Source: Candidatus Gastranaerophilales bacterium (GTDB taxonomy: Bacteria > Cyanobacteriota > Vampirovibrionia > Gastranaerophilales > Gastranaerophilaceae). Taken from it: a DNA stretch of 43,604 nucleotides. The stretch is taken from NCBI GenBank assembly GCA_944323285.1, contig CALURV010000026.1:1-43604 (forward strand). Direction: 5' to 3'. The position numbers and the translations under genes are program-made. Shown here one piece after another: positions 3,394-7,375 of the stretch (position 1 is its first letter; every line of letters starts with the position of its first letter). The notes beneath the pieces are model-generated. The model was not told the origin of the DNA. It searched no databases and saw nothing but the letters and a program-made list of their open reading frames with translations.

Positions 3394-4383
3394 TTGTTTG
3401 ATTATATAGATATAGACCATTACTCTTTTATAAACAATTATGTAATGATAAATGAAAAAAAGTTTAATTGTTTTTTTAATATTGTATTTATTTTAATAAT
3501 TTTTATGTTTGCAAATTTTGCTATTTTTTACCTCGTAATAACAAAAAATTATACAAATCCAAATATAAAAGACATAATATTAGAGTACAAAAATTTTCTA
3601 TCAAGAGATATTAGTTATAAAGATTCTTTTGAAAATTTAATTCTATCAAAAAATATAAGAAAAGTAGAAAATAAATATTCAAAAGAAAAACCAGTATTAA
3701 TATTTGGATGTTCTTTTGCAGAAGGTTTAGGATTAAAAGATAATGAAACTATTTCATATAAATTAGGGGAAATGACCTCTCGACCAATTTATAATAGGGG
3801 TATTAGCGGTACGGGAGTTCAACATATGCTATTTCAGCTAAAAAACGAAGAATTTTATAAAATTGTACCAAAACCTGAGTACATTATATATGTATTCATG
3901 GATGGACATACTCAACGTATATTCACTCCTGTATCATTATCTTATAATAATTGTTATACAGCTTTTTATAAAAAAAGGGGGGGGAATGAATTCAAACTTA
4001 AGAAAAGAAACTTTTTCTCAGATAAAATAATTATAAAACATTATATATCCAATCAGCTGACTTGGAATTTTTTAAACAGAATCAATAATTACAATGATTT
4101 TACTGAAAGATTATTAATTGACTACATTCAAGAATCAAGAAAAGAAGCAGAAAAACACTGAGAAAAAGACTTAAAATTTGTTGTAATTTTTTATAGAGAT
4201 CCAATAAGACAAGAAACAATAAAAAAATTAGATAATCTAGGATATATAATTATTACAAAAAAGGATTTTAAAATTAATGTATGGGATAAAAAATTTAAAA
4301 TTTCAGAAACAGATGAACATCCAAACGGACTTGCTTGGGATTATATAGTACCTGTAATAGTCAAAAAATTAAATTTAATCTAA
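3394..4383 (+). pseudogene. SGNH-hydrolase-like membrane-anchored protein, interrupted by in-frame TGA
   Basis: The first 255 codons read to a TGA at 4159-4161; the same frame then continues for 73 sense codons to a TAA at 4381-4383. The continuation aligns by eye with the C-terminus of the paralogue at 6431-7339: the strand after the stop (KDLKFVVIFYRD) matches PDVKFIVLDMED, and the end carries TDEHPNGLAWDYI with the His-Pro expected near the catalytic His. The N-terminal part has a membrane segment (about residues 24-47), the nucleophile motif FGCSFAEG (paralogue GCCMTYG) and an NRGISGTGVQHMLFQL block. A one-base change (TGG to TGA) could explain the stop. The start may be TTG 3394 or ATG 3445; neither has a Shine-Dalgarno. 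The gene also contains an A7G8 tract. It may still give a truncated protein lacking the C-terminal His. Confidence 0.8.
3970..3984 (+). repeat. A7G8 homopolymer tract inside the SGNH-like gene
   Basis: Seven A (3970-3976) followed by eight G (3977-3984), reading Lys-Lys-Arg-Gly-Gly in the coding frame. It is the longest G run I see in this AT-rich window. Poly-G tracts in AT-rich genomes are known slipped-strand mispairing sites in surface genes (for example in Campylobacter). The present tract length keeps the gene in frame across it. Confidence 0.85.
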
Positions 4384-5353: not shown

Positions 5354-6427
5354 TCATTTATCTTTTCTTCTTTTGAAATAATTAATATAATTACTTATAA
5401 CTTGTTTTTTCCCAATATAATCAAGAGTTAAAAGATGTGGTGGCAAACTATTCATATACTCTTTTAACAAGTCATTTTTTAGTATTTTTACAAAATTATT
5501 ATAATGTCTATGAAATGGAGAAAATATTTCATATTCAATTTTTTCTGAAGCATACTCAGCACCAGAATTATAATTAATTAATGAAAATGACGGTCTTGCA
5601 AAAAATCTTTTTGTTAAATTTATAAACAAAAGAATATCTTTATAATTTAATGAACAAATCACAAACATTATTTCAAAATTTTTGATTTTATTATCCTTTT
5701 TTAATCTTTTTATATATTCAAGATTCTCTATAACTTTATTAAAATTATCTCTTCTAAATATTTTTTTATATGTCTCTCTGGTAGCAGAATGAAGTGAAAC
5801 ATGTATAGTATTAATTTTATTCTCTATCCCTAAACTCTTAATGTTTTTTTCATTAAATGAAACTCCATTTGTTATTAAGTTAAACTCAAGATTTTCATTA
5901 ATTTCTAACATTTTGCTTATCATATTACGTGAAAATTTTCCATCTAGAAATTCACCAGCATGATTTAATTCAACAATACGCACATATTTTATAATCGGAA
6001 GTATTTTTTCTTCAAATACATTAGTCCATTTTTCAACTTCTTCCTTAGACATCATTGATACTTCATCTCGGCAAAAAACACATTTTTGATTACAGGAACA
6101 ATCAAATGCAAAATAAATTAATTTGGGATAATCTTTTGTATATTCTTCTAACTCTTCAGGAACTTTAAACCCATAAGATTCAATAGCGTTTACTCCAAAT
6201 TTTAAACACAATTCCGTTTTACAATAAGAATAATCATTTTTAGAAAGAATATTCTTTCTAATCTTCCTAATCTCATTCCCATTCCATATTTCATCAAATG
6301 ATTTTTCGAAAATATTTCCCAATGAAATTTTATGAAAATTACTTGTACAGATATAGCAGTTACCACTATTTTCAATTCTTAGCATATTCCAAGGGGCTAT
6401 ACAAATATCAGAATTTAAGAGCACCAT
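5354..6427 (-). CDS. Radical SAM protein with N-terminal SPASM-like cysteine region
   Basis: A 357-residue radical SAM enzyme. The [4Fe-4S]/SAM motif CNQKCVFC (CxxxCxxC) lies near residue 115. Ahead of it is an auxiliary-cluster-like region: CIAPWNML near residues 9-16, CYICTSN near 24-30, a GNIFEKSFDEIWNG block and YCKTEL-C near 67-73. This resembles a SPASM region placed before rather than after the core. Such enzymes modify peptides, sugars or lipids by radical chemistry; the substrate cannot be told. Its ATG follows the stop of the upstream SGNH-like gene by only 3 bases, so the two are translationally coupled and probably work on the same polymer or surface molecule. It stops at TGA; 13 further sense codons in frame are not obviously conserved. 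Confidence 0.8.
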   Translation of the reverse strand: MVLLNSDICIAPWNMLRIENSGNCYICTSNFHKISLGNIFEKSFDEIWNGNEIRKIRKNILSKNDYSYCKTELCLKFGVNAIESYGFKVPEELEEYTKDYPKLIYFAFDCSCNQKCVFCRDEVSMMSKEEVEKWTNVFEEKILPIIKYVRIVELNHAGEFLDGKFSRNMISKMLEINENLEFNLITNGVSFNEKNIKSLGIENKINTIHVSLHSATRETYKKIFRRDNFNKVIENLEYIKRLKKDNKIKNFEIMFVICSLNYKDILLFINLTKRFFARPSFSLINYNSGAEYASEKIEYEIFSPFHRHYNNFVKILKNDLLKEYMNSLPPHLLTLDYIGKKQVISNYINYFKRRKDK

Positions 6428-6430
6428 TTT

Positions 6431-7243
6431 TTAATTAAATTCCTTAACTATATTTGGTAAAACCAATTTCCAATATTCTGAAGATGGATGAGCAAACTCA
6501 TCACTCCAATATTTTTTGTCAAGTTCCCATATTGTTTTACCATCAGTATATTTTGTTAAATCAATTAATTTTATACCTTGACTATTTAACTCTTTGTTTT
6601 CTGTTCTATCACTATCATCATAAAGCTCACCTATATCTTCCATATCCAAGACAATAAATTTAACATCAGGATACAATTCCTTCGCTTTCTTATATGATTC
6701 TAGTATATAAAAATCAACCAATTTTTTATCAAAATGATTTCTACTATAAAGAGATTTCACTGTATATAAAATTAATGACCTATTTAATAAAGAATTTAAA
6801 CTTTTTACTAACTTCCCATTTTTTATTTTATATGTTAGATAATAAGGTTCATTTGCACTACAATTTGAATATATACGTCTATAATGATCTCTAATTATTG
6901 TATAAACGATATAATCAGGTTTTACTTTTATCTCTTGAGGAAATTTAGAATCAGTTAATTGGTAAAACATATGTTGGAGACCCCATCCTGGAGTTCCTCT
7001 ATTTATAACAGTCATACCAGTATACTTGTTTAACATAGCAGACAAAGTATCTTTATCTTCTACAGCCACTCCATAAGTCATACAACAACCAAAAGTTACT
7101 ATTACTCCTTTTTTAGGACCATAAGAAGTTGGACGAAATTCCTGAAAAAATACTCCGTTCTTATACAAATCTTCAAACTTTTCTGTTGAAAATACATAAG
7201 TAAAATTGGGATCTTCTTTATGTAAGAAATAATACGAAGCCAC
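6431..7243 (-). CDS. SGNH-hydrolase-like protein with Cys at the nucleophile position; 5' end disrupted
   Basis: A paralogue of the interrupted gene at 3394-4383. The open part, from GTG 7243, gives 270 residues. The nucleophile motif reads TFGCCMTYG, with Cys54 where the paralogue has Ser (TGT versus TCT, one base). The block NRGTPGWGLQHMFYQL and the terminal DEFAHPSSEYW (His252) match the paralogue. The GTG has no good ribosome site. The open frame runs further upstream and encodes a membrane anchor (NIIIILFIVVIAEV) but meets a TAA; beyond it, still in frame, is ATG 7339 followed by RKKIKIVLV. Removing one copy each of the 16-bp and 11-bp repeats in between restores one continuous anchor. 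The gene is therefore either off, decayed, or starting at a non-ATG codon. The radical SAM gene follows by 3 bases. Confidence 0.75.
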   Translation of the reverse strand: MASYYFLHKEDPNFTYVFSTEKFEDLYKNGVFFQEFRPTSYGPKKGVIVTFGCCMTYGVAVEDKDTLSAMLNKYTGMTVINRGTPGWGLQHMFYQLTDSKFPQEIKVKPDYIVYTIIRDHYRRIYSNCSANEPYYLTYKIKNGKLVKSLNSLLNRSLILYTVKSLYSRNHFDKKLVDFYILESYKKAKELYPDVKFIVLDMEDIGELYDDSDRTENKELNSQGIKLIDLTKYTDGKTIWELDKKYWSDEFAHPSSEYWKLVLPNIVKEFN

Positions 7244-7262
7244 TTCAGCTATTACAACAATG

Positions 7263-7323
7263 AATAATATTATAATAATATTATAATAATATTAACTAAT
7301 ACTATTTTTAACTAATACTATTT
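7263..7323. repeat. Two short tandem duplications at the 5' end of the SGNH-like gene
   Basis: Two exact copies of a 16-bp unit (7292-7307 and 7308-7323) adjoin two exact copies of an 11-bp unit (7272-7282 and 7283-7293), with 9 bases of a third 11-mer at 7263-7271. The extra copies add 16 + 11 = 27 bases, nine codons, but place a TAA in the reading frame between the ATG at 7339 and the membrane segment. Confidence 0.9.
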
Positions 7324-7346
7324 TAATTTTCTTTCTCATAATTCAA

Positions 7347-7355
7347 ATTATATCA
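7347..7355 (-). promoter_or_regulatory. Extended -10 promoter element before the SGNH-like gene
   Basis: On the minus strand this reads TGATATAAT, a perfect extended -10 element. Seven bases separate it from ATG 7339, so the transcript would start at or within a base of the ATG (leaderless). No Shine-Dalgarno is present. Confidence 0.5.
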
Positions 7356-7375
7356 CAATACATTCTTTATAGCTA

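What the first reader, a model, noticed from the sequence alone, without database searches (positions are those of the whole stretch)
6431..7339. Two tandem duplications (16 bp + 11 bp) switch off a membrane-anchored SGNH-like gene
From ATG 7339 the frame gives MRKKIKIVLV, then hits a TAA made by the duplicated segment. Deleting one copy of each repeat rebuilds an uninterrupted anchor running from RKKIKIVLV into NIIIILFIVVIAEV and then the SGNH domain. The sum of 27 bases keeps the frame but brings in the stop. Together with the G8 tract in the paralogue, both copies of this family carry repeat-based on/off potential, which looks like a contingency system for a surface polymer.
Basis: partly seen in the sequence, partly recalled or inferred. 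Interest (0 to 1): 0.65.

Follow-up and report, generated by a model that had tools for sequence, protein, structure and literature searches.

The report
Duplication-broken membrane-anchored SGNH-fold gene
In a gut relative of cyanobacteria, two short neighbouring DNA duplications have recently cut the membrane anchor off a surface-type enzyme gene that is intact in three related species; it looks like an ordinary broken gene in a large family rather than a purpose-built on/off switch.

Summary
On the minus strand, an exact 16-bp duplication (7324-7293) abuts an exact 11-bp duplication (7292-7271). They sum to 27 bp and put a TAA at codon 16 of the frame from ATG 7339. The same-locus orthologue in a sister species (76% aa identity) has a single-copy anchor of exactly the length predicted without the duplications. 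Two more species (53-57%) also keep the anchor. So the duplications are derived and they break the gene. ATG 7339 is the right start: an extended -10 box lies 7 nt upstream, conserved in the sister species, and such spacing is a sharp genome-wide peak (leaderless mRNAs). The inactivation is recent: dN/dS is about 0.25 and this lineage shows no amino-acid acceleration.

The contingency interpretation is not supported for these repeats. Almost every repeat-number state is OFF and no single-unit contraction reopens the frame. No orthologue has such repeats. Two other members in this genome are broken by unrelated lesions. The neighbour is stopped by TGA at a Trp codon, while its G8 tract is in frame. 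Best reading: a fresh loss-of-function allele in a turnover-prone family.

Side finding: in other species of the genus, poly-G/C tracts split SGNH genes at the anchor-domain junction, like true homopolymer phase variation.

The parts
7346..7356 (-). extended -10 promoter element TGTGATATAAT; TATAAT ends 7 nt upstream of ATG 7339 (leaderless-type promoter)
   Evidence: same element and same 7-nt distance in G012; genome-wide peak of TATAAT at 6-7 nt before ATG: 20+13 genes against about 3 per position elsewhere in the first 18 nt
7337..7339 (-). ATG, native start codon of the SGNH gene
7293..7324 (-). exact 16-bp tandem duplication (7324-7309 and 7308-7293), the only exact 16-bp tandem duplication found in 1.82 Mb of own genome
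7271..7292 (-). exact 11-bp tandem duplication (7292-7282 and 7281-7271) within an A+T-rich run of 2.9 copies (7263-7294)
7292..7294 (-). premature TAA (codon 16 from ATG 7339), at the junction of the two arrays
6431..7291 (-). rest of the SGNH-fold coding frame after the TAA, 286 open codons; block I GCC in place of the family's GCS; conserved N, DH..R and D..HP motifs
   Evidence: fold
7241..7243 (-). GTG, first standard start codon after the TAA; would give a protein without its anchor; no Shine-Dalgarno sequence seen before it
5354..6427 (-). radical SAM/SPASM gene, partner of the SGNH gene in all four species that hold the orthologue; starts 3 nt after the SGNH stop codon
3394..4383 (+). 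SGNH paralogue with in-frame G8 tract at 3977-3984 and a nonsense TGA at 4159-4161 where its two closest paralogues have Trp; the frame goes on after it to a TAA near 4383

Best explanation
This is a recent loss-of-function allele. A leaderless, membrane-anchored SGNH-fold gene, first gene of a conserved two-gene unit with a radical SAM/SPASM gene, picked up two adjoining short tandem duplications in the very A+T-rich DNA that encodes its transmembrane anchor. SHOWN: the duplications, their absence from orthologues, the premature stop, and an intact downstream frame with no excess of amino-acid change. INFERRED: the 11-bp unit arose by replication slippage (about 10 bp of overlap already existed in the single-copy sequence), the 16-bp unit by a template-switch type of duplication (only 1 bp of overlap). 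Each changes the frame or brings a stop; together they are in frame again but leave a TAA. The cell then makes at most a 15-residue peptide and no anchored enzyme, and translation of the radical SAM gene may fall too because the genes are nearly contiguous (inferred). Because the family is large (about 10 copies in this genome) and other copies here are broken by a nonsense codon and by a frameshift, loss of single members is ordinary turnover or selected loss, not a dedicated repeat switch.
For: Repeat anatomy and stop. Orthologue at the same locus without repeats, with an anchor of equal length; two further species with the anchor intact. Duplication class unique in this genome, other large non-triplet duplications outside genes or at gene edges. 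dN/dS 0.25 against the sister species and 13 vs 17 lineage-specific amino-acid changes, so no long neutral decay. Start codon fixed by promoter geometry. Repeat-number grid: not switchable in one unit step. Two other family members in this genome broken by other lesions: TGA in the neighbour, frame change after the anchor in L010.
Against: Two independent duplications within 62 bp is unusual for random decay when the genome holds so few; a hot spot or repeated cycles would also explain it. Only one genome of this species is held, so fixation versus polymorphism is unknown. Homopolymer-type splitting of the same family exists in related species, so the genus is not free of possible contingency.
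Confidence: 0.7

Rival explanations
1. Reversible phase variation by spontaneous short tandem duplication inside the reading frame, as reported for the pneumococcal capsule genes cap3A, cap8E and tts. The anchor region is a duplication hot spot, and cells that lose the duplications switch the gene back on.
For: Precedent exists (PMC4243769 contrasts its irreversible mutation with capsule loss by spontaneous sequence duplication, citing Waite 2001 and 2003; PMC2995930). The duplications are exact, hence young. The downstream frame is preserved. The family belongs to a genus where homopolymer tracts split other members.
Against: Two stacked lesions: loss of either unit alone leaves the frame closed. 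No duplication at this place in three orthologues, and only one exact duplication of 10 bp or more elsewhere in the SGNH loci scanned. No strain variation could be seen with the data held.
Confidence: 0.13
2. The gene is still used. Translation starts at a weak downstream codon (GTG 7243, or an ATT/ATA codon next to the TAA), giving an anchorless or nearly normal protein.
For: The frame after the TAA is open for 286 codons and retains most of the hydrophobic segment (YYYNIIIILFIVVIAEV). No relaxation of selection is detectable.
Against: The promoter places the mRNA 5' end at about ATG 7339, conserved in the sister species. No Shine-Dalgarno sequence is seen before GTG 7243. Intact homologues carry a positively charged N-terminus plus transmembrane helix, which a start at GTG 7243 would remove. 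A recent lesion also leaves no detectable relaxation.
Confidence: 0.09
3. Assembly artefact or chimera: the contig merges two strains that each carry one duplication, or mis-assembles the A+T-rich repeat.
For: The genome is a 36-contig draft at 96.9% completeness and no reads are available.
Against: The whole doubled array is about 62 bp, shorter than one short read. Such exact duplications are nearly absent elsewhere in the assembly, and the flanking SNF2 and radical SAM genes are intact.
Confidence: 0.08

Closest known systems
Spontaneous tandem duplication in pneumococcal capsule genes cap3A, cap8E, tts (Waite et al. 2001, 2003, as cited in PMC4243769 and PMC2995930)
   Same: Short tandem sequence duplication inside an open reading frame abolishes a gene that belongs to, or may belong to, the cell surface.
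   Different: There the duplications are reported to cause high-frequency phase variation; here two stacked duplications are present, reversion is unseen, and single-unit loss does not restore the frame.
Simple-sequence (homopolymer) contingency loci, e.g. poly-G/C tracts of Campylobacter (PMC8355987, abstract)
   Same: Repeat-length change shifts the frame of a gene. Relatives in this genus have SGNH genes split at G9-G10/C11 tracts.
   Different: The 16/11-bp units are two-copy, not a hypermutable tract, and nearly all copy numbers are OFF. The window paralogue's G8 tract is in frame.
SGNH/GDSL-fold carbohydrate esterases and acetylesterases (PDB 2wao, 1wab, 4rsh and others)
   Same: Predicted fold of the intact orthologue matches them at Z 11-12; C-terminal D..HP motif present.
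   Different: Block I is GCS in the family instead of GDS, and GCC (Ser to Cys) in this orthologue group; block III reads DH..R rather than GxND.
Recent bacterial pseudogenes
   Same: Single family member with a premature stop, otherwise intact frame, orthologues intact.
   Different: Nothing essential; the inactivating lesion is a double tandem duplication rather than a base change or one-base indel.

Membership tests
Repeat-number contingency locus (simple-sequence phase variation) | Change by one repeat unit toggles the reading frame between open and closed | tested here: not met
   Grid of copy numbers: apart from the trivial (0,0) state only (1,1) is open; no 11-bp or 16-bp removal alone reopens the frame
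Repeat-number contingency locus (simple-sequence phase variation) | Repeat tract present in orthologues with differing copy number | tested here: not met
   G012, G035, G027 orthologues lack the repeats
Repeat-number contingency locus (simple-sequence phase variation) | Mixed states within a population or between strains | not testable with these tools
cap3A-type tandem-duplication phase variation | Short exact tandem duplication within the reading frame closing the gene | tested here: met
cap3A-type tandem-duplication phase variation | Frequent precise reversion | not testable with these tools
   Would need cultures or deep reads; single-unit loss does not restore the frame here
Pseudogene / loss-of-function allele | Frame-closing lesion that is derived relative to intact orthologues | tested here: met
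Pseudogene / loss-of-function allele | Relaxed selection since inactivation (expected only of old pseudogenes, not defining for a recent null allele) | tested here: inconclusive
   No relaxation seen: dN/dS 0.25; 13 vs 17 lineage changes. Expected if inactivation is very recent, so it dates the lesion rather than refuting it
SGNH/GDSL hydrolase superfamily | SGNH alpha/beta fold | tested here: met
   AlphaFold2 model of intact orthologue, pLDDT 61, pTM 0.62; the top 50 VIA-align rows are almost all named SGNH/GDSL esterases, lipases or thioesterases, Z 10.4-11.8; weak sequence match to PF13472
SGNH/GDSL hydrolase superfamily | Catalytic Ser of block I (GDS) | tested here: not met
   Cys in all 4 members of this orthologue group, Ser in the other 25 aligned members; hence 'SGNH-fold protein', hydrolase activity unclaimed
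SGNH/GDSL hydrolase superfamily | Block V D..H(P) | tested here: met
   His275 and Pro276 invariant in 29 sequences, acidic residues just before the His in this gene (DEFAHP)

The most novel reading that the evidence does not exclude
Membrane-anchored SGNH genes of this gut genus are a phase-varied surface family in which on/off lesions gather between anchor and catalytic domain: poly-G/C tracts in some species, short tandem duplications in the species of the window. The double duplication would then be one OFF state of a population-level switch in a non-photosynthetic gut cyanobacterium.
Probability: 0.15. Interest if true: 0.55.

Novelty: new member of a known kind. Interest (0 to 1): 0.25.

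Why it matters
The locus itself is an ordinary but unusually clean case of a gene closed by microduplications, with an orthologue that shows the prior state. Its wider use is as a pointer. The SGNH family is large in Gastranaerophilales, members are lost by varied lesions, and some sister species carry many poly-G/C tracts, including in this family. If confirmed by reads, that would be evidence of homopolymer phase variation in this little-studied, mostly uncultured gut lineage.

Tried and rejected
(1) TGA read as Trp to rescue the paralogue: rejected, TGA ends 101 of 1174 long ORFs in this genome. (2) GTG 7243 as native start: rejected by the orthologues' anchors and the leaderless promoter geometry. 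(3) Genome-wide tendency to short tandem duplications: rejected, only a handful of exact non-triplet ones in 1.82 Mb. (4) Poly-G/C tracts enriched in SGNH genes relative to their flanks in four tract-rich species: not seen, 5 in 57 kb inside or within 60 bp of the matches against 11 in about 164 kb around them. (6) DNA hairpin in the doubled region as a driver: weak, z = -1.9, 9 of 200 shuffles fold as well. (7) Literature on phase variation in Melainabacteria: one irrelevant hit. (8) PDB sequence search: only weak, 4rsh at E 0.017, later supported by fold comparison.

Full report
WHERE IT IS. The window is contig C26 of a 1.86-Mb, 36-contig, 28% G+C draft genome, 96.9% complete. The sister species that carries the orthologue is recorded as Candidatus Gastranaerophilales, so this is a gut, non-photosynthetic relative of cyanobacteria (the ecology is general knowledge, not tested). 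TGA is a normal stop here (101 of 1174 long ORFs).

OBSERVATION. On the minus strand from ATG 7339 the sequence is ATGAGAAAGAAAATT, two exact copies of AAAATAGTATTAGTTA, two exact copies of ATATTATTATA, then ATATTATTCATTG. The frame stops at codon 16 (TAA) and the SGNH frame runs open for 286 codons directly behind it. Repeat runs of this kind are rare: in 1.82 Mb of this genome there is one exact 16-bp duplication (this one) and only four exact non-triplet duplications of 14 bp or more; random sequence of matching composition gave none. The other three lie between genes or at a gene edge.

THE ANCESTRAL STATE. The closest relative (G012, the same contig as L070) has the orthologue at the same place, between the SNF2 helicase gene and the radical SAM/SPASM gene, 76% identical in protein. 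Its N-terminus is MKRFFKILFINISIILFILVVAEV, exactly as long as the window anchor with single-copy units. Two more species (G035, G027; 57 and 53%) have the same SGNH-radical SAM pair at another chromosomal place, again with an intact anchor. The doubled state is therefore derived.

THE START CODON. Both the window and G012 have TGTGATATAAT with its last base 7 nt before the ATG. Counting TATAAT upstream of the first ATG of 1151 long ORFs gives a sharp peak at 6 and 7 nt (20 and 13 genes, against about 3 at other positions in the first 18 nt), the mark of leaderless mRNAs. This gene belongs to that class, so ATG 7339 is very likely the real start, and GTG 7243, deep in the message with no ribosome site in view, is not.

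AGE. Against the sister species the post-stop coding region has dN/dS about 0.25. Using G035/G027 as outgroups, 13 amino-acid changes fall on the window lineage and 17 on the other. There is no sign of long neutral decay, so the inactivation is recent.

IS IT A SWITCH? In a grid of 0-4 copies of the 16-bp unit by 0-6 copies of the 11-bp unit, apart from the trivial (0,0) state only (1,1) is open. With two or more 16-bp units the TAA comes before the 11-bp array, so the latter cannot matter. Removal of only 11 or only 16 bp never opens the frame; only other, multiple-of-three deletions between direct repeats of at most 5 bp do. A contingency tract would toggle with single-unit steps. No such repeats occur in the orthologues, and the SGNH loci L002-L039 plus L111-L113 show just one other exact duplication of 10 bp or more (12 bp, L023). 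Pneumococcal capsule genes do switch by spontaneous duplication (Waite et al., cited in PMC4243769 and PMC2995930), so the idea has a precedent, but it is not what this anatomy suggests.

THE FAMILY. A protein search finds 10 family members in this genome. Besides the window gene, the neighbour at 3394-4383 is stopped by TGA 4159-4161, where its two closest paralogues (L004, L009) have Trp; its G8 tract is in frame. Member L010 has its anchor and its domain in different frames. So three of ten are broken, by three kinds of lesion. The intact orthologue models as an SGNH fold (pLDDT 61, pTM 0.62) that matches SGNH/GDSL esterases at Z 11-12. The whole family has GC[S] where GDS is usual, and this orthologue group has Cys in place of the Ser, so activity should not be assumed.

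In other species of the genus, homopolymer tracts of 8 or more G or C vary from none to hundreds of 8-mer windows per genome, and some split SGNH genes between anchor and domain: G10 in L204 (G024), C11 in L230 (G024), G9 in L248 (G023), each with the anchor and the GCS block in different frames. They are not enriched in SGNH genes relative to flanking DNA. In 1.82 Mb of the window's own genome there are only two tracts of 8 or more. This is a lead for homopolymer phase variation in the genus, separate from the tandem duplications.

VERDICT. Observation confirmed; inactivation supported; contingency system by these repeats not supported. The most likely account is a recent null allele made by two microduplications in A+T-rich anchor DNA. 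Not tested: within-population variation, transcription, translation, enzymatic role, and any link to a surface polymer.

Noticed in passing
Genus-wide; L204, L230 (G024), L248 (G023), coordinates: SGNH-family genes of sister species are split into two frames by G9-G10/C11 tracts between membrane anchor and catalytic block I, like OFF states of homopolymer phase variation.
   Followed up: partly
41 genomes of the genus: Counts of GGGGGGGG windows differ from 0 to about 350 per genome between species of one genus, far above the chance expectation (about 0.4 tracts for the window genome) in many of them; cause and targets unknown.
   Followed up: partly
L174:1501-1511 (G001): G11 tract directly behind a DPPYG motif in a probable DNA methyltransferase frame; a candidate phase-variable modification gene.
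   Followed up: no
L128:14281-14290 (own genome, C5): G10 tract immediately upstream of the ATG of a 148-aa gene (resembling YhcH/TabA by eye, not tested), in the same TATAAAAAAAGGGG context as the window's G8 tract.
   Followed up: no
own genome, upstream regions: Sharp peak of TATAAT 6-7 nt before ATG, a sign that dozens of genes in this lineage have leaderless mRNAs.
   Followed up: partly
window 6431-7243 and orthologues in L070, L112, L113: This orthologue group has Cys instead of the block I Ser (GCC vs GCS) and is always paired with a radical SAM/SPASM gene; a possible Cys-nucleophile SGNH protein.
   Followed up: partly
L010:1296-1500 (own genome, C30): Another SGNH-family member has its anchor and domain in different frames (frameshift of unknown origin).
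   Followed up: partly
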